From the IMG/VR virus record IMGVR_UViG_3300008627_000025, positions 1 through 37,344 of that record: a DNA stretch of 37,344 nucleotides; one strand, written 5' to 3'. Of the stretch, positions 1 through 37,344 are shown one piece after another (position 1 is the first letter of the stretch; the number at the start of each line of letters is the position of its first letter). Source of the stretch: a virus. The notes under the pieces are model-generated. The model did not search any database. It saw nothing but the letters and a program-made list of their open reading frames with translations, and was not told the DNA's origin. The position numbers and the translations under genes were made by a program.

Positions 1-93
1 TAGTATTACATTAAATTTTAAATCATTTGATGTTACTTCTAATGCTGAATTAGCACTTTCTAAAGTGTCTGAACCCTCTTTAGCCCATGCCAT
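1..93 (-). CDS. Fiber domain protein, N-terminal fragment (duplicate of 37226-37318)
   Basis: This is the first 31 codons of the fiber protein annotated in full at 36845-37318. It appears here only because of the terminal overlap and is not a separate gene. The start codon at 91-93 has a strong Shine-Dalgarno sequence (GGAAGGAG on the minus strand, about 100-108), 21 nt downstream of the stop of the paralogous fiber gene at 114-1190. After closure the two genes are therefore adjacent members of one operon. Confidence 0.85.
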   Translation of the reverse strand, partial: MAWAKEGSDTLESANSALEVTSNDLKFNVIL

Positions 94-119
94 TTTAATT
101 CACTCCTTCCATTCTAATC
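1..119. repeat. Terminal direct repeat, left copy (contig closure overlap)
   Basis: These 119 bases are identical to 37226-37344. An exact repeat at both contig ends means the molecule closes into a 37,225-bp circle, or is a circularly permuted or terminally redundant linear genome. A length of exactly 119 matches a k-mer size used by de Bruijn assemblers, so it is more likely an assembly overlap than a biological terminal repeat (inference). Confidence 0.95.
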
Positions 120-16231: not shown

Positions 16232-16540
16232 ATGGATTCTGTAAAATATGATGATGGGAAGCCTAAATTGGGTCTAATTCCTACACATGCAGCATTTGGA
16301 ATGGGAAGAGCATTAGGATATGGTGCACTAAAATATGATAATTTTAACTATAAAACAGGTACAGGTTTAGATTGGGACAGATATTATTCTGCCTTGTTAA
16401 GGCATTTGTTTGCATGGATTGGTGGAGAAAACAATGATGATGAATCTGGATTAAATCATTTAGATCATGTATTAGCATGTAGTGCAATGTTGGCAGATGC
16501 AGTATATTCTGGAATAGGGAATGACACTAGATTTAAATAA
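16232..16540 (+). CDS. dATP/dGTP diphosphohydrolase-like protein (MazG-related phage family)
   Basis: A 102-aa protein. The N-terminus (KYDDGKPKLGLIP, residues 5-17), then ALGYGALKYDNFNYKTG and LLRHLFAWIGGENNDD, followed by SGLNHLDHVLACSAML, match the small phage family annotated as dATP/dGTP diphosphohydrolase N-terminal domain. The E/D-rich helices would bind Mg and a dNTP. In Z-genome phages a related enzyme (MazZ) supplies precursors to PurZ, but I find no PurZ here. A role in adjusting nucleotide pools is inferred. It opens a three-gene plus-strand cassette between terminase and portal modules. Confidence 0.75.
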   Translation: MDSVKYDDGKPKLGLIPTHAAFGMGRALGYGALKYDNFNYKTGTGLDWDRYYSALLRHLFAWIGGENNDDESGLNHLDHVLACSAMLADAVYSGIGNDTRFK

Positions 16541-24226: not shown

Positions 24227-25012
24227 ATGACTAATCTATTACCACCATTTCAAGAAGAACTGTATAAGGAATATCCATTTTATGTAAAATATTTCGGGTA
24301 TGAAATCGAAGGCGGCTTTGAATATGATTATTCAGACACTTATTGCGAAGAATGTGATTCATCTGTTTGTGGCTGTGTAGAATCTGAAAACCAATATTTC
24401 AAGCATGACGGTTCGGTAGAAACAGAAGATTATACCGCAGGCGAAATTGCAAGCCCAAAATTTAGAGTTGACAGAATGCCACAATTTGAACAATTTGTAA
24501 AAGAGAATATGCCGCAAGAAGTTAATAACACATGTGGACTTCACGTTCACTTATCATTTAACAACCAACTTGCATATGAGAAAACTATGGACTTGGAATT
24601 TTTTACAGAATTCAAAGTTAAGGTTAAGGAATTTGTTTTGAATTCGGGACTTTTTACCGAACATACGCAAGAAGAATTTGTTAAAAGATTTAGGGGTAAT
24701 AACACGTATTGTAGGGACATATTTTCACCAAATTCTCAAGCAACAGGAAAAAATGTTTATGACGAAACAACCGAACAAGGAAGATATACTTTCATAAATT
24801 ATCCATATAACCAACATGGGACGATTGAATGTCGATTATTTCCAAGTACAGTTTCTAGTTCAGAAGTATGTAGTTTTGTAAAATGGTTTATTGACTTTAC
24901 AAATACTTACTTGAAAAACCAACCAAAATATGAACGCGGTAATTACCAAAATACTAAAATCAAAAACGTTCAATCAATCAATGAAAAGGAGTCTGTTATT
25001 ATATGTGTGTGA
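24227..25012 (+). CDS. Amidoligase-family enzyme (GS-like carboxylate-amine ligase)
   Basis: A 261-aa protein. FGYEIEGGFEYD (E26, E28), FKHDGSVETED (D61), GEIASPKF (72-79), CGLHVHLSF (103-111) and NYPYNQHGTIECRLF (191-205; E201, R203) are the ordered motifs of the amidoligase (COOH-NH2 ligase) family, related to glutamine synthetase. The enzyme would use ATP to join a carboxylate to an amine. A small Cys insert (CEEC 40-43, CGC 48-50) could bind zinc. The next gene, overlapping by 10 nt, encodes a class II glutamine amidotransferase that could supply ammonia. Substrate unknown. Confidence 0.85.
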   Translation: MTNLLPPFQEELYKEYPFYVKYFGYEIEGGFEYDYSDTYCEECDSSVCGCVESENQYFKHDGSVETEDYTAGEIASPKFRVDRMPQFEQFVKENMPQEVNNTCGLHVHLSFNNQLAYEKTMDLEFFTEFKVKVKEFVLNSGLFTEHTQEEFVKRFRGNNTYCRDIFSPNSQATGKNVYDETTEQGRYTFINYPYNQHGTIECRLFPSTVSSSEVCSFVKWFIDFTNTYLKNQPKYERGNYQNTKIKNVQSINEKESVIICV

Positions 25013-26109
25013 TTCTTGCATGTGAAGATAAATTTCCTACTTCTGAATTATTAAAATCATGTGAAGTCACAAATCCGCATGGAGCTGGAATTGCATGGAA
25101 CGATTCAAATGGAAATCAACATTATAGAAAAGGAATTGATTCAGACGAAATAATTTCAATGATTGAATCGGGATTAGTTAAATTACCTTGCATAGTTCAT
25201 TTTAGGATTGCAAGTGTTGGGACTAGTGACGGTCTTGAAGGTAAAAAACTATGTCACCCATTCCCAATTAATGACAAAGTCGAATTAGACTTGCAAGGTC
25301 ATATTGCATCAGATAAAGACGGTTTACTATTCCATAACGGGACAGTTTCAAATTATGAAGATATTGTAAAAGAAACTGTATTATCATCAGGTAAACGAAT
25401 GTTAAAAGGCGTTATTTCAGATTCTCGAATAATGGCTTTTAGTGCTGCACAATATGGTCACGAATTCATACCTTACTTGGATTCTGATACTTGGAATAAA
25501 TACGCAATCTTAGATAAAGACGGCATTCACAAATACGGAAATTGGCATGAAGACGAAGGCGTGCAGGCTTCAAATCAATATTACAAAATGAATTCAAATA
25601 ATGGGTACATTTACGGATTAAGTAATGATTTTGACGAATGGGACGAATCTGGAATAGATAATGTTGGACGTAAAGACGCTTTTGACGAATTTAATGATGA
25701 AGATTCATTTAATACAGTTAAAGGCGAATGGATTAAACAAAAAAACGGTTCTTGGAAATATATTAAATCTGAATTCAAAGAAACATGGACAGAAGAAAAA
25801 CAAAAAGACGTTAAAGAGTTAAACGACTTTTTTGGACTCTCAGACAAAATAAAATATCCATCTAAAAAGAAATTGAAAAAAGAACGTAATGCAAATATTC
25901 AATATTTGTTAAATCATAATTGGGTTAACCCCCAAAGATTAGACAATAAAGCCTTGTATTATTGGGTTCATGTCTTACAAACAAACAAGAAAACATTAAC
26001 CAAAGACAAAATACAAAAAACACTTAATCAACGTGAAAAGATGAACGCAGACGACTATGTAGACTTGTTTAAACAGAATGAGGAATGGATTGAAAAATTC
26101 AAATCTTAA
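25003..26109 (+). CDS. Class II glutamine amidotransferase-like protein (Ntn hydrolase)
   Basis: A 368-aa protein. C2 directly after Met is the nucleophile expected of GATase II. NPHGAGIAW (24-32), HFRIAS (66-71, R68 for substrate), CHPFP (84-88), HNGTVSNY (111-118, N112/G113 oxyanion) and SDSR (139-142, D140) complete the active site. The C-terminal part (about 220-368) is charged and unrelated to known synthetase domains (EGTs such as KKKLKKERNANIQ), perhaps a docking region. It overlaps the amidoligase gene and has AAGGAG upstream. It likely hydrolyses glutamine and passes ammonia to the amidoligase. Confidence 0.82.
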   Translation: MCVILACEDKFPTSELLKSCEVTNPHGAGIAWNDSNGNQHYRKGIDSDEIISMIESGLVKLPCIVHFRIASVGTSDGLEGKKLCHPFPINDKVELDLQGHIASDKDGLLFHNGTVSNYEDIVKETVLSSGKRMLKGVISDSRIMAFSAAQYGHEFIPYLDSDTWNKYAILDKDGIHKYGNWHEDEGVQASNQYYKMNSNNGYIYGLSNDFDEWDESGIDNVGRKDAFDEFNDEDSFNTVKGEWIKQKNGSWKYIKSEFKETWTEEKQKDVKELNDFFGLSDKIKYPSKKKLKKERNANIQYLLNHNWVNPQRLDNKALYYWVHVLQTNKKTLTKDKIQKTLNQREKMNADDYVDLFKQNEEWIEKFKS

Positions 26110-28721: not shown

Positions 28722-29120
28722 TTAAACGTTATTTAAATCTTCCCATTTTCCATCTTTGCATATTCTCCAAGAAATTTCTGGAAATGTGTTATATGCATGA
28801 ATTACGGTAAACTGTTCTTTCAATATTGTTAACACAGGACACCTATGACTTTTCTTCCATTCTATAAACTCATACTCTTCTGTAGGATTCATTGAATATT
28901 CACACAACTCTTTATTCTCTTTGGGTGTTAAATATTTCTTATTGTTATTTGACTTCAAAGATTTAGCCTGAATACCCCACCTTATTCCGTCCTTATAGGC
29001 TAACAAATCAAACATTCCCTTGCTTGCATAAGCACGTTTAACAATCCAACCTTTCTGTCTTAAAAAATCACGGACTTTATATTCAAAGTCTCTACCCTGA
29101 TTATAATTCTTTCTTGCCAT
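28722..29120 (-). CDS. Hjc-like Holliday junction resolvase/PD-(D/E)XK nuclease
   Basis: A 132-aa protein. GRDFEYKVRDFLRQKGWIVK (E13 region), then RAYASKGMFDLLAYKDG and WGIQAKSLKS match archaeal Hjc: E in the first helix, SKG, D in the FDLL strand and (E/Q)xK, here Q-A-K. Hjc resolves four-way junctions at replication or recombination; here it could process concatemers before packaging. The enzyme has a normal length. The catalytic Q in place of E is known in this fold but lowers certainty about activity. It overlaps the zincin-like gene by 20 nt. Confidence 0.78.
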   Translation of the reverse strand: MARKNYNQGRDFEYKVRDFLRQKGWIVKRAYASKGMFDLLAYKDGIRWGIQAKSLKSNNNKKYLTPKENKELCEYSMNPTEEYEFIEWKKSHRCPVLTILKEQFTVIHAYNTFPEISWRICKDGKWEDLNNV

Positions 29121-31155: not shown

Positions 31156-31355
31156 TCCTTACTCCCCTTATTTTCGGTGTTCATAAATTCATTCATACCC
31201 TCTTTAGTCCAAAAGTATGGTACATCTTCAATTCCTAATTTATCTAGGATTCCATATAGTTGTTCTCCATACTTTTCTGATTCCTTGCCGTCCCATATGT
31301 CTGCAAGTTCAACTATTATTTCCCTTAGTTTCTCGTTTTGTTCTATTCTATTCAT
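31152..31355 (-). CDS. Small hypothetical protein, 67 aa
   Basis: MNRIEQNEKLREIIVELADI then YGEQLYGILDKLGIEDVPYF. Acidic, helical. It overlaps both neighbours by 4 nt (ATGA). No family recognised. Confidence 0.5.
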   Translation of the reverse strand: MNRIEQNEKLREIIVELADIWDGKESEKYGEQLYGILDKLGIEDVPYFWTKEGMNEFMNTENKGSKE

Positions 31356-31549
31356 TGTGAATCAAGTCCTCTCAGTTTATCCATAACATCTGGACTAATA
31401 TATCTAACCTGTGCTGTCTTGTTAGTTATTAATATAGTCAAGTCCTTATATTTTTTCTTGTCTGTTATTTTTTCTAACAAAACTCTGAGTTCATCTTTTT
31501 CTTTGTCATTCCATTCAGGTGGAACATTTACAATTATATCTCCTTTCAT
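31352..31549 (-). CDS. Small hypothetical protein, 65 aa
   Basis: MKGDIIVNVPPEWNDKEKDE then KKYKDLTILITNKTAQVRYI. The opening motif (I-V-NVPP or NNVPENLSHEQ) resembles that of the next upstream gene, hinting at a duplication. ATGA overlaps at both ends. Confidence 0.5.
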   Translation of the reverse strand: MKGDIIVNVPPEWNDKEKDELRVLLEKITDKKKYKDLTILITNKTAQVRYISPDVMDKLRGLDSQ

Positions 31550-31767
31550 TTATTATCCACCAACTGTTTGATAATATTTTCTAAGAAAAGTATTTTGCTT
31601 TCTTGTTCTCCTAACTTTTTTATTGCTGTTACCATTTGTTTGGTTGTTATATCCAACCTAGATTTAACGTCTTCATAATCTAATAAAAGATCATTCAGTT
31701 TTTCTTTCAAGTATTTTTTCTGTTCATGACTCAAATTTTCAGGAACATTATTTATTATATCTTCCAT
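31546..31767 (-). CDS. Small coiled-coil protein, 73 aa
   Basis: MEDIINNVPENLSHEQKKYL then DVKSRLDITTKQMVTAIKKL, mostly helix. N-terminus similar in plan to the 31352 protein. A TATA-like GGTTTATAAAGAGG lies 20-35 bp upstream, inside the end of the Mom-like gene, so an internal promoter may start here. Confidence 0.5.
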   Translation of the reverse strand: MEDIINNVPENLSHEQKKYLKEKLNDLLLDYEDVKSRLDITTKQMVTAIKKLGEQESKILFLENIIKQLVDNK

Positions 31768-31774
31768 GATATAG

Positions 31775-32356
31775 TTAAGGTCGTATCCTCTTTATAAACC
31801 TTACTTTTGGTTTCTCTGTTACCTTTCTAAGATTGTTCTTCATAGCATAATCCAATTCTGTAATCCCCAATTTTTTAGCAGCGTCCCAAGGTAGTCTCTT
31901 GTTTATACGATTGCCCTGCATATCTATGTAATGATATTTCTTTGCTGTATATCCATGTAGTTCCCAACTGCCTGCCTTATATACTGTACCATCATGTCCT
32001 TCTGTCTGATCTGCATATGTTACTAACATCTTAACTTTAGGAAATTTCTGTCTCAGTATCTTAATAGATCTACTCATGAAATATGTTCTATTAACAGGTT
32101 CATCATCTAGTACAACCATTCTAAGAAATTCAAAACAAGTCTGTTCTGTATGACCTAAAGATTTAGCTACTAGTCTGCCACTAGGCTGTCCAAAGGTTAT
32201 GACTCCTACAAGTTTATCTTTACGCCACATACCTGTAATCAGGCTAGCCTTGCCAAATGCTCTAGTGTAATGATTATTAATAACAAATGGTTTTGCTATA
32301 TCTCTACTAATTACGTTAACTAAACATTCGCCCAACAAGGTTTCTCTCCACCACAA
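31775..32356 (-). CDS. Mom-like DNA modification protein (GNAT fold)
   Basis: A protein of up to 193 aa. PFVINNHYTRAFGKASLI, WRKDKLVGVITFGQPSG, FEFLRMVVLDDEPVNRTYFM, LVTYADQTEGHDGTVYKAGS and WELHGYT follow the order of the phage Mom family, GNAT-like proteins. In phage Mu, Mom converts adenine to a carbamoylmethyl form that blocks restriction. Here it would protect viral DNA from host restriction (inference). The start is uncertain: TTG at 32356 overlaps the Cys-rich gene by 37 nt; TTGs at 32338 and 32335 are alternatives. No ATG is near. It is the best evidence for hypermodified DNA in this virus. Confidence 0.82.
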   Translation of the reverse strand: MWWRETLLGECLVNVISRDIAKPFVINNHYTRAFGKASLITGMWRKDKLVGVITFGQPSGRLVAKSLGHTEQTCFEFLRMVVLDDEPVNRTYFMSRSIKILRQKFPKVKMLVTYADQTEGHDGTVYKAGSWELHGYTAKKYHYIDMQGNRINKRLPWDAAKKLGITELDYAMKNNLRKVTEKPKVRFIKRIRP

Positions 32357-32613
32357 TAACTATGCTTGTTATATTTACAACATGGACATCTGTCATTACC
32401 TGTCTTTGCATTTTTAGGTATGTTCCAACCACCGTCCTTGACTCCTTCAAACCTATATGTTTTTTTCTTGTTAAAGTCTGTCCTCTTAAAGTCATATTTT
32501 AATACGTTAATACAGTAATCTTCCAATTCAATAATCTGTTTCTTTATTTCCTCTTTCTTTATTACATTACCTTCCTTGTAATATGCTGCCAACAAATCCT
32601 GTCTCTTACTCAT
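32320..32613 (-). CDS. Cys-rich zinc-binding protein overlapping the Mom-like gene
   Basis: A 97-aa protein. The N-terminus is helical (KEEIKKQIIELEDYCINVL). The end (RCPCCKYNKHSYCGGEKPCW) has C76, C78, C79, C87 and C93, fitting a zinc or Fe-S knuckle. It overlaps the Mom-like gene by 37 nt. In Mu, the small zinc-finger Com gene overlaps mom and activates its translation; this pair has the same layout, but the sequence does not show Com homology. It overlaps the upstream gene by 4 nt. Confidence 0.6.
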   Translation of the reverse strand: MSKRQDLLAAYYKEGNVIKKEEIKKQIIELEDYCINVLKYDFKRTDFNKKKTYRFEGVKDGGWNIPKNAKTGNDRCPCCKYNKHSYCGGEKPCWANV

Positions 32614-32900
32614 CTTGAACCCACCTTAATCCATTGCTTACAATCAGGACTCTTACATCTCTTTCTGTTTAAATGTAGGTCAGATATGTCAACCCCACAT
32701 CTGTTACAGTTTCTTTTTGGTGCTAACAAGCGTCGTCTTTTGGTTAAAAGTCTAGACCTGTTATCATTCTTTCTTTTACAATATATTACATTCATGACAC
32801 TACTATGCAATTTGCAGAACTTTCTACGACCAGATTCAAATTTGAACCATGTATTTCTACATGAACCATATTGACACATTCTTTCTATATGTCTACCCAT
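32610..32900 (-). CDS. Small double zinc-finger protein, basic
   Basis: 96 aa from the ATG at 32900 (MGRHIERMCQYGSC). Two groups: C9, C14, C29, H32 and C65, C68, C82, C87, each a zinc site. A very basic middle (LLTKRRRLLAPKRN) suggests nucleic-acid binding. The ATG overlaps the MCM stop by 8 nt; a TTG start at 32933 is less likely. It lies between MCM and the Cys-rich/Mom pair. Confidence 0.6.
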   Translation of the reverse strand: MGRHIERMCQYGSCRNTWFKFESGRRKFCKLHSSVMNVIYCKRKNDNRSRLLTKRRRLLAPKRNCNRCGVDISDLHLNRKRCKSPDCKQWIKVGSR

Positions 32901-34734
32901 TGTATCTGAACACTCCTTTGCTTGCTGTTCCAAGTAATCTGCCTTCTTTCATCAACTCTTTTACAGTATCTTCGGCTATATTAATCTTGTTAAACATTTT
33001 ATTTTCCATCAATCTGACCTTGAACGAATCAATATTTATCATACCACTCATTGCACATTCTTCAAGACATTCGTCTACGAATTGTTGTTTTGTTGAATCT
33101 CTTGTAGCCAACTGAGTCTTTTTAAATTCACCCATGGTTTTCATTCCAAATGATGACAAAGCCTGTATGTATAATCTCCATGCATTATTGACATCTTCTA
33201 TCTCTACTTTTGGACTAAATCTGAATCTTGCAAAACTATATGATGCCCTTATAATGTCATGATATGCCCTTGAATCAATATCCAAAGAACCCTTATCCTG
33301 TTCTCTGAATTTCAATTCTATATACAAGTCTTCCAGTTTGCCCAATGCATTTGTTTCAAATATAGGGTTCAAACTCTTTGCATAGTTCAAGTATTTTATC
33401 AACATGTCTTTTTTTAACAATCCCTCATCTTCTATGAATTTATCCAGACCGTCTATCTTAATACGGTTTATTCTTCTAATCTTTTCACGTTCTTGATTGA
33501 CATCGAAATTATCCAAGACTAAAAAGATATACCCAAATCTTGCTAGGAGAGAATTGGGCATACCTATATTAGCCATAATTGTTGCGTCCTTATCATATCT
33601 GCTACTCTTAGGATTTGCAGCACCGATAATTTTGGTTTGTGCAGGCATGGTCAAGTTTATACCAACCTTATTCAAATGTGCCATCTGTTCTTCCATGACA
33701 TCGTGTAACATAGACCTATCGTCTGGTTTCATTTTATCCATTTCATCTATACAAACAAAATGATTATGTGCCAATATAACCGGACCAAATGTAGCCATTC
33801 TGGTTCCGTCAGGCAGGTTATCTACACCCATAACCATACCCGCAGCACTAGCGGAACGACCACTTATCTTGTAAGATTTTTGGTCTAAACTTTTCAAGTC
33901 GTCTAGAATATCTGATTTTCCTGTCGAAGGGTCTCCTACAAACAAAGCTGAAATATCCCCTCTCATATTATCAACTCTTCCACCTGATAACAAAGAAATT
34001 AGAGCAGCCATTTTTTCTTTTTTACGGTAAATTAATTGCGGTGCTAAAGACTCTATTATTTTTTCAGAATCCATTTTTCTAAATATTTCTATTTCATCAG
34101 GTGTTGGGAGAACCGTGGTGTCTTCGTCCATACATCTAACCCTTGTAACTGACAATACAAATCTGTTATAATTCTCTTTCTTTCCATATGATACAGCCCA
34201 GACTCTTGCTTCAAATGTATAATCTTTACCTGCCTGTAATTCATATACGTCCTTTCCTATTAATTGGGCTTCAATTCTTCTTGGGTTTACAGAACCTTCT
34301 TCGTTTGTTTCTTGAAGTACAACCTTTCTAATGTTTCCAATAATACTTTGTTTTTTGTCAATTAACATAGGTGCTTCTTCACAACTACTACAAACACCTA
34401 TTGAATCTTTGTCATATATTTCTCTGTAATCATCACATGCTTTTTCTGTCTCTGCTCCACATGATTGACATATGTATACCTTTTTGATATAATAGTTTGA
34501 GATGTCACTAGTCTGCATAATTGTAGCCTTGAACACAACAAGTCCGTTCAAATGTTTTGCATCTATTGTTTTAAAAGGTGTTGTATTGCCAGTTATGTTT
34601 AATATGTCTACTGAACCGTCTGTATTATCACCTATAACCTCTTTTACTTTTTCAGGGTGGTCTCTGAAACAAGTACCAATCAATAGTTTAGGTTCTACTA
34701 TCTTACATTCTTCACATGCAAATTTCCTAGCCAT
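32893..34734 (-). CDS. mcm: MCM replicative helicase
   Basis: A 613-aa protein. N-terminal zinc site: C89, C92 and C115, C118 (CQSC, CSSC) in the OB domain. AAA+ core: Walker A GDPSTGKS (about 267-274), Walker B CIDEMDK (about 328-334), sensor 1 AANPK, and arginine finger LLARFG (about 396-401). The end (FKVRLMENKMFNKINIAEDT) resembles the winged helix. MCM forms a hexameric ring that unwinds DNA 3' to 5'; viral copies replace or recruit the host helicase. Near full length. No polymerase or primase is visible, so these would come from the host. Confidence 0.93.
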   Translation of the reverse strand: MARKFACEECKIVEPKLLIGTCFRDHPEKVKEVIGDNTDGSVDILNITGNTTPFKTIDAKHLNGLVVFKATIMQTSDISNYYIKKVYICQSCGAETEKACDDYREIYDKDSIGVCSSCEEAPMLIDKKQSIIGNIRKVVLQETNEEGSVNPRRIEAQLIGKDVYELQAGKDYTFEARVWAVSYGKKENYNRFVLSVTRVRCMDEDTTVLPTPDEIEIFRKMDSEKIIESLAPQLIYRKKEKMAALISLLSGGRVDNMRGDISALFVGDPSTGKSDILDDLKSLDQKSYKISGRSASAAGMVMGVDNLPDGTRMATFGPVILAHNHFVCIDEMDKMKPDDRSMLHDVMEEQMAHLNKVGINLTMPAQTKIIGAANPKSSRYDKDATIMANIGMPNSLLARFGYIFLVLDNFDVNQEREKIRRINRIKIDGLDKFIEDEGLLKKDMLIKYLNYAKSLNPIFETNALGKLEDLYIELKFREQDKGSLDIDSRAYHDIIRASYSFARFRFSPKVEIEDVNNAWRLYIQALSSFGMKTMGEFKKTQLATRDSTKQQFVDECLEECAMSGMINIDSFKVRLMENKMFNKINIAEDTVKELMKEGRLLGTASKGVFRYNG

Positions 34735-36844: not shown

Positions 36845-37318
36845 TTAATCAGTTCCTAATGCTGATAAATCAGAATCAGTATCAAAGTTACTTGCTACAC
36901 TAACATCTAAATCAAATTGTGTCAATGATGTGGTAATATCATATTTTCCAACAACTTCTCTACGACTTGGTGCTGTGCCTGCTCCTGTGGTGGCATTTCC
37001 AACTCCCCAACATAATGCTAGTTTTTCTTTCCCTGAAATATTAGACACATAACAAACAACAAATCCGTCTGGACTTTGAGGGTGGAAACCACCGATGAAA
37101 GTTGCGTTAGTTCCTGTTGTATCACCACCACCATTTTCTGAACGTCTATAAGCATAGTCAGTAGCACTTGAATCATTAAATCTTAAGAGTTGTTGCATAC
37201 TTCCAGAATCTGCAAAATGATGAGATAGTATTACATTAAATTTTAAATCATTTGATGTTACTTCTAATGCTGAATTAGCACTTTCTAAAGTGTCTGAACC
37301 CTCTTTAGCCCATGCCAT
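36845..37318 (-). CDS. Tail fiber/appendage protein, single-domain paralog
   Basis: A 157-aa protein similar to each half of the 114-1190 protein (shared NISGKEKLA, GAGTAPSRREVVGKY). Probably the same beta fold in a single-copy form, produced by duplication. The AAGGAG ribosome site and 21-nt gap to the 114-1190 gene are seen only after joining the ends. Its N-terminal 31 codons appear twice in the window because of the overlap. Confidence 0.7.
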   Translation of the reverse strand: MAWAKEGSDTLESANSALEVTSNDLKFNVILSHHFADSGSMQQLLRFNDSSATDYAYRRSENGGGDTTGTNATFIGGFHPQSPDGFVVCYVSNISGKEKLALCWGVGNATTGAGTAPSRREVVGKYDITTSLTQFDLDVSVASNFDTDSDLSALGTD

Positions 37319-37344
37319 TTTAATTCACTCCTTCCATTCTAATC
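37226..37344. repeat. Terminal direct repeat, right copy
   Basis: Identical to bases 1-119; see the left copy. One copy should be removed when the circle is closed at 37,225 bp. Confidence 0.95.

What the first reader, a model, noticed from the sequence alone, without database searches (positions are those of the whole stretch)
31775..32613. Mom-like DNA hypermodification with a Com-like overlapping zinc protein
Seen: a GNAT-type protein with YADQTEGHDGTVYKAG and ITFGQPSG, matching the Mom family, overlapped by 37 nt by a small Cys-rich gene. Known: Mu Mom makes N6-carbamoylmethyladenine and is translationally controlled by the overlapping zinc-finger gene com. Inference: viral DNA carries a modified adenine that evades host restriction, and the overlap controls expression. 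The TTG-only start and overlap suggest tight translational regulation. To my knowledge Mom-type modification is little studied in archaeal viruses.
Basis: partly seen in the sequence, partly recalled or inferred. Interest (0 to 1): 0.75.

Follow-up and report, generated by a model that had tools for sequence, protein, structure and literature searches.

The report
Mom-type DNA-modification gene in archaeal viruses

Summary
The Mom half of the finding is right. The ORF at 31775-32356(-) matches Pfam Mom (E=8e-31), PHROG Mom-like (5e-33) and Mu Mom itself (30% over 142 aa); the predicted fold matches the Mu Mom crystal structure best (Z 16.1, next 12.6). The start is TTG at 32338 (187 aa), so the overlap is 19 nt, not 37. 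The window is a complete (119-bp terminal repeat) tailed virus related to thaumarchaeal proviruses. Mom belongs to a 100%-supported clade of six archaeal-virus proteins under purifying selection. They keep H48, E98, R101, D139 and Y149 but share S114T, N153S and H173N. Mom is absent from complete relative G013 and from about 1,200 sampled Thermoproteota genomes, so it is mobile viral cargo.

The Com half is not supported. The Cys-rich gene has no similarity to Com. Homologues exist in viruses without Mom and, in L120, beside a Mom that it does not overlap. There is no inhibitory hairpin or Com motif, and such overlaps are routine here.

Best reading: virus DNA adenine hypermodification against restriction (inferred). 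The virus lacks GGCC (0 against 28 expected) and avoids AGCT, a methylation motif reported in thaumarchaea, so restriction pressure is real and Mom has not relaxed it.

The parts
31775..32338 (-). Mom-family GNAT-fold DNA-modification enzyme, 187 aa, TTG start (frame open to 32356)
   Evidence: PF25680 E=8e-31, PHROG 1384 E=5e-33; Mu Mom 30%/142 aa, E=1e-14; fold match to 8bv8 Z 16.1; start placed by sister L060; dN/dS about 0.13
32344..32349 (-). Shine-Dalgarno-like GGAGAG upstream of the TTG start (sister L060 has GGAGG before ATG)
   Evidence: sequence inspection
32320..32613 (-). 97-aa upstream gene with C-terminal CxxC...C...C knuckle; not a Com homologue
   Evidence: no family match; conserved in L060; homologues in Mom-less G020 and others
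32335..32388 (-). codons of the Cys motif (C76-C93, CPCCKYNKHSYCGGEKPC), overlapping the Mom ribosome site
32320..32338 (-). 19-nt overlap between the Cys gene and mom, same length in L060
31546..31767 (-). 73-aa ORF starting MEDIINNVP, resembles its downstream neighbour; function unknown
   Evidence: no reliable family match
31352..31549 (-). 65-aa ORF (NVP gene) homologous to the gene that directly follows the Cys gene in Mom-less G020
   Evidence: 38% over 60 aa, E=2e-6
32610..32933 (-). 107-aa Cys-containing ORF in the same position as an ORF of G020 (CxYGSCR)
   Evidence: weak, E=5e-4, plus gene order
32893..34734 (-). MCM replicative helicase, upstream in the same operon
   Evidence: PF00493 E=1e-47; archaeal virus matches
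1..119 (.). direct terminal repeat, left copy (complete genome)
37226..37344 (.). direct terminal repeat, right copy

Best explanation
This is a Mom-family, GNAT-fold nucleic-acid-modifying enzyme carried as optional cargo in the replication operon of a thaumarchaeal tailed virus (next to MCM). The likely action, inferred from Mu Mom, is acylation of the N6 amino group of adenines in the virus's own DNA during infection, which blocks host restriction enzymes. It is translated from its own ribosome site (GGAGAG-TTG) at the end of the upstream gene, by ordinary operon reading or termination-reinitiation, not by a Com switch. Shown here: family membership, fold, conserved catalytic core, purifying selection, archaeal-virus clade, gain or loss between relatives. 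Inferred: DNA as substrate, the adenine product and the anti-restriction role.
For: Profile hits far above cut-off. 30% identity to Mu Mom. PDB 8bv8 (Mom) best by sequence (E=6e-10 single sequence, 7e-32 profile) and by fold (Foldseek 8.6e-12 against 1.3e-5 for the next; Z 16.1 against 12.6). All residues invariant in the family are present, including H48, E98, R101, D139, Y149; position 114, whose alanine mutant is titled inactive in 8bv8, is Thr, as in several other Moms. Six archaeal-virus Moms form one 100/100 clade. dN/dS 0.19/1.44. Mom sits in three different places: after the Cys gene (window, L060), before the phosphoesterase (L120), after family B polymerase or a small Cys gene (L121, L127, L129); absent from complete G013 and from the syntenic site of G020. 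Restriction pressure is real: GGCC 0 of 28 expected, AGCT 19 of 70, neither comparably avoided in sampled genomes of the host class; thaumarchaeal AGCT m4C and GATC m6A methylation is published (PMC6329791).
Against: No chemistry was measured. Two positions near-invariant elsewhere differ in all six clade members (H173N, N153S), and S136 is Thr in four of six, so substrate or product may differ. AGCT and GGCC avoidance is not relaxed in Mom-bearing viruses relative to Mom-less ones, so Mom has not removed that pressure; GGCC has no adenine, and AGCT is methylated on cytosine.
Confidence: 0.72

Rival explanations
1. One reading: the Cys-rich gene is a Com analogue that binds mom mRNA and opens an inhibitory structure so that Mom is made late.
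For: A C-terminal Cys knuckle overlaps the mom ribosome site, and overlap length and knuckle are conserved in L060. CxxC-ending upstream genes overlap mom in two other lineages: Mu com and the ParB-Mom phages. The second Cys pair is absent from the Mom-less homologue in G020.
Against: No similarity to Com; motif C-terminal, not N-terminal; no CC(N)2-3GAG motif and start-region folding no stronger than shuffles or other starts of this genome (z +0.06 to +1.1; -3.4 against -2.8 kcal/mol mean), whereas Mu gives -9.5 and two motifs. Homologues exist without Mom or apart from it: in L120 the Cys gene overlaps the NVP gene by 8 nt and Mom lies about 460 nt downstream. About half of the nearby junctions overlap.
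Confidence: 0.07
2. A Mom-clade enzyme with altered chemistry: same fold and catalytic core, but another acyl group, base or nucleic acid (for example RNA).
For: H173N and N153S in all six archaeal-virus members, long stem (1.34) to all other Moms.
Against: Core residues conserved; positions 153 and 173 vary in a few phage Moms too (L055, L057, L058, L063); no direct evidence of another substrate.
Confidence: 0.18
3. An ordinary GNAT acetyltransferase of proteins or small molecules, unrelated to Mom.
For: GNAT fold; many GNATs score Z 11-12.6.
Against: Mom profiles at 1e-31 to 1e-33, Mom structure best by a clear margin, Mom-invariant residues conserved.
Confidence: 0.03

Closest known systems
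Phage Mu Mom (PDB 8bv8, PF25680)
   Same: Fold, 30% identity over 142 aa, conserved H48, E98, R101, D139, Y149
   Different: Thaumarchaeal virus instead of a bacterial phage; shorter N-terminus; S114T, N153S, H173N; no Com homologue; lies by MCM or PolB
Mom-like DNA modification proteins of other tailed phages (PHROG 1384: Enterococcus Efquatrovirus, ICP1, Listeria, Microbacterium phages)
   Same: Com-less mom genes, often beside DNA polymerase, helicase or other replication genes
   Different: At most about 30% identical over the full alignment; separate clade
Mu Com
   Same: Small Cys-containing gene upstream of and overlapping mom
   Different: No sequence similarity, different motif position, no target RNA features, occurs without Mom
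Nitrososphaera provirus Pro-Nvie1
   Same: TerL 35%, capsid, tail and baseplate relatives
   Different: No Mom in its annotation and no Mom hit in it

Membership tests
Mom family (PF25680) | Profile score above the curated cut-off | tested here: met
   107.7 bits against 27.1
Mom family (PF25680) | GNAT fold closest to the Mom structure | tested here: met
   8bv8 Z 16.1, rmsd 3.6, 158 aligned; next 12.6
Mom family (PF25680) | Conserved catalytic core (H48, E98, R101, S/T114, D139, Y149 in Mu numbering) | tested here: met
   that H48, S114, D139 and Y149 form the active site is from my own knowledge of the Mu Mom literature
Mom family (PF25680) | H173 and N153, near-invariant in other Moms (typical, not defining: both vary in a few phage Moms) | tested here: inconclusive
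   N and S in all six clade members; other residues also occur in L055, L057, L058, L063, so departure does not exclude membership
Mom family (PF25680) | Modifies adenine in DNA | not testable with these tools
   needs LC-MS or an enzyme assay
Mu Com (translational activator) | Sequence similarity to Com | tested here: not met
   BLASTP E=0.16, six residues
Mu Com (translational activator) | N-terminal CCCC zinc finger, disordered C-terminus (PMC6483171) | tested here: not met
   Cys motif at residues 76-93 of 97; N-terminus predicted helical, C-terminus low confidence
Mu Com (translational activator) | CC(N)2-3GAG hairpin target and inhibitory structure holding the mom start | tested here: not met
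   no motif within -120/+60 in window or L060, two in Mu; no excess folding
Mu Com (translational activator) | Gene dedicated to mom | tested here: not met
   homologues without Mom (G020 and others) and apart from Mom (L120)
[quoted passage not shown]
   needs EMSA and a reporter
Thaumarchaeal tailed virus | Terminase and virion genes related to thaumarchaeal proviruses, archaeal MCM | tested here: met

The most novel reading that the evidence does not exclude
Archaeal tailed viruses carry their own Mom lineage whose active site has changed (S114T, N153S, H173N), making a DNA hypermodification different from Mu's, exchanged between at least two groups of viruses of ammonia-oxidising archaea as a counter to host restriction.
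Probability: 0.2. Interest if true: 0.7.

Novelty: new member of a known kind. Interest (0 to 1): 0.45.

Why it matters
DNA modification reported for archaeal tailed viruses in the survey I could read is 7-deazaguanine and methylation; the word Mom does not occur in its main text (PMC8651126). A Mom clade in viruses of ammonia-oxidising archaea extends this chemistry to an ecologically major host group. It also gives a natural comparison of viruses with and without Mom under measurable restriction pressure (GGCC and AGCT avoidance), and an enzyme set with defined substitutions to compare with the solved Mu Mom.

Tried and rejected
Com homology of the 97-aa and the 107-aa Cys genes: none. A translation-inhibition structure at the mom start: none beyond chance. 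Using the 19-nt overlap as evidence of regulation: rejected, overlaps are common. Relaxed palindrome avoidance in Mom-bearing viruses as a sign of protection: not seen. Active-site decay: an early worry because of H173N; rejected by dN/dS 0.13, clade-wide conservation and similar variants in other Moms. Structure of the Cys protein: too poor to use (pLDDT 57). Single-protein and degenerate-pattern scans missed most relatives; the decisive relatives came through the Cys gene. My first conclusion that Mom is nearly unique to the window was wrong. The paper on the Mu Mom active site (10.1093/nar/gkaa319) is not held. Whether any named archaeal virus isolate carries Mom was not tested exhaustively: the rows seen of the phage-collection hits named none.

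Full report
Observation. Both ORFs exist as described. The 193-aa ORF is a Mom protein by every sequence test: PF25680 at 107.7 bits (cut-off 27.1), PHROG 1384 E=5e-33, Mu Mom 30% identity over 142 aa, E=1e-14. A profile of 14 Moms finds one good PDB match, 8bv8, 'Methylcarbamoylase mom' (E=7e-32); the window protein alone finds it at 6e-10. NCBIfam gives only a weak sub-cut-off hit.

Start and overlap. The sister contig L060 encodes a 77% identical Mom that starts with ATG (MSSECLV) at the codon aligned to codon 7 of the window ORF, behind GGGGGAGGAAAACC. The window has GGTGGAGAGAAACC-TTG there, so the start is most likely TTG at 32338 and the overlap is 19 nt, equal in both viruses. The TTG is not conserved, so it is weak evidence for regulation.

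Fold. AlphaFold2 with nine window or viral-contig sequences gave pLDDT 86. Foldseek ranks both chains of Mu Mom (inactive mutant S124A) first, E=8.6e-12 against 1.3e-5 for the next GNAT; VIA-align gives Z 16.1 against 12.6. S124 in that entry is S114 in the 231-aa numbering used here, by offset and by the alanine in its sequence.

Virus. Identical 119-bp ends show a complete genome. TerL is 35% identical to that of the Nitrososphaera viennensis provirus Pro-Nvie1, the only phage-collection match; MCM matches only archaeal viruses there; capsid, tail and baseplate relatives are found in Pro-Nvie1; TerL relatives occur in 34 of 400 genomes of the order of a Nitrososphaeraceae MAG. IMG/VR holds 23 contigs with close TerL.

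Mom is optional cargo. None of those 23 contigs has Mom, although most are fragments; G013 is complete (99-bp end repeat) and lacks it. In G020 the gene order is MCM, 98-aa Cys ORF, 107-aa Cys-gene homologue, NVP gene, a 59-aa ORF, then phosphoesterase, with no Mom. A scan with the Cys gene found further relatives, five of which carry Mom. L120 has the Cys gene, then the NVP gene (8-nt overlap), a 68-aa gene, Mom, phosphoesterase. L127 and L129 have Mom right after a family B DNA polymerase (7-nt overlap), and L121 has it after a 58-aa Cys protein following the polymerase. L123-L126 and L129 also carry MCM relatives. Mom was not found in 400, 400 and 398 (partly overlapping) genomes of the class, order and phylum of a Nitrososphaeraceae MAG. 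No control rang within those runs, but the same query rings in the window, L060, a phage contig, Mu and Enterococcus phage Vaquero.

Clade and active site. The six Moms form one clade, 100/100, on a stem of 1.34 changes per column. They keep H48, Y49, G71, E98, R101, D139, G146, Y149 and A151 (H48 and Y49 lie outside the truncated L125 copy). Position 114 is Thr in all six (and in several of the 31 others); N153 is Ser and H173 is Asn in all six, positions that are N or H in nearly all others. Between window and L060 dN is 0.19 and dS 1.44, so the gene is maintained.

The Cys gene is not Com. There is no similarity to Com. Com has an N-terminal CCCC finger, recognises CC(N)2-3GAG in a hairpin loop and melts a structure holding the mom start (PMC6483171). 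Here the motif is C-terminal, no such RNA motif exists near the start in either virus, the -25/+15 region folds at -3.4 kcal/mol against a genome mean of -2.8, and Mu gives -9.5 and two motifs; longer windows fold no better than shuffles. The gene exists without Mom and apart from Mom (above). One caution: upstream genes that end in a CxxC motif and overlap mom by 8-32 nt also occur in a ParB-Mom phage clade, so a loose functional tie is not excluded.

Restriction context. GGCC is absent from the window (28 expected by a Markov model; 12.9, sd 3.0, by codon-preserving shuffles of the genes) and from most relatives, and AGCT is at 19 of 70 (17 against 79, sd 7, by shuffles); four archaeal genomes of the same class, sampled at 100 kb each, show no comparable avoidance. 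Some relatives avoid GATC almost entirely (L027 0/30; L022+L030 2/49). A freshwater thaumarchaeon methylates AGCT (m4C) and GATC (m6A), motifs also reported for Nitrosomarinus (PMC6329791), and type I restriction genes are frequent on thaumarchaeal mobile elements (PMC6563490). So these viruses face restriction, but Mom-bearing genomes avoid AGCT as much as Mom-less ones. Mom therefore either acts on other systems, came recently, or protects incompletely.

Verdict. A real, conserved Mom in a thaumarchaeal virus lineage, a new member of a known kind with a clade-specific active site; the Com analogy fails. DNA modification remains an inference from the family.

Noticed in passing
window 1-37344; G020, G010, G004, G013, L014-L031: Strong avoidance of restriction-type palindromes in this virus family: GGCC absent (0 of 28 expected in the window, 0 of 66 in G020), AGCT about 0.1-0.5 of expectation in most, GATC nearly absent in L027 and L022/L030; not seen in four sampled genomes of the host class.
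   Followed up: partly
L057, L058, L062, L063, L066, Antuna (L044): In a clade of Mom phages the upstream gene (ParB-like where tested, L066, or annotated, Antuna) ends in a CPxC motif and overlaps mom by 8-32 nt, an arrangement parallel to com-mom.
   Followed up: partly
window 24227-26109 (+): Putative amidoligase (PF12224, E=4e-8) overlapping an ORF that by eye resembles a class II glutamine amidotransferase (no Pfam match); possibly a peptide or cell-surface modification pair.
   Followed up: no
window 16232-16540 (+): dATP/dGTP diphosphohydrolase N-terminal domain protein (PF18909, E=9e-25) opposite the packaging genes; nucleotide-pool enzymes often accompany DNA modification.
   Followed up: no
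window 28722-29120 (-): Hjc-like archaeal Holliday junction resolvase (PF01870, E=2e-5), conserved in relatives.
   Followed up: no
PHROG 559 and 3339; Campylobacter phage hits: Mom-like domains also match families named HNH or homing endonuclease, suggesting Mom-nuclease fusions in some phages.
   Followed up: no
window 31546-31767 and 31352-31549: Two tandem small ORFs starting with similar M-(E/K)-D-I-I-x-NVP motifs look like a duplication specific to the window; L060 has one copy.
   Followed up: no
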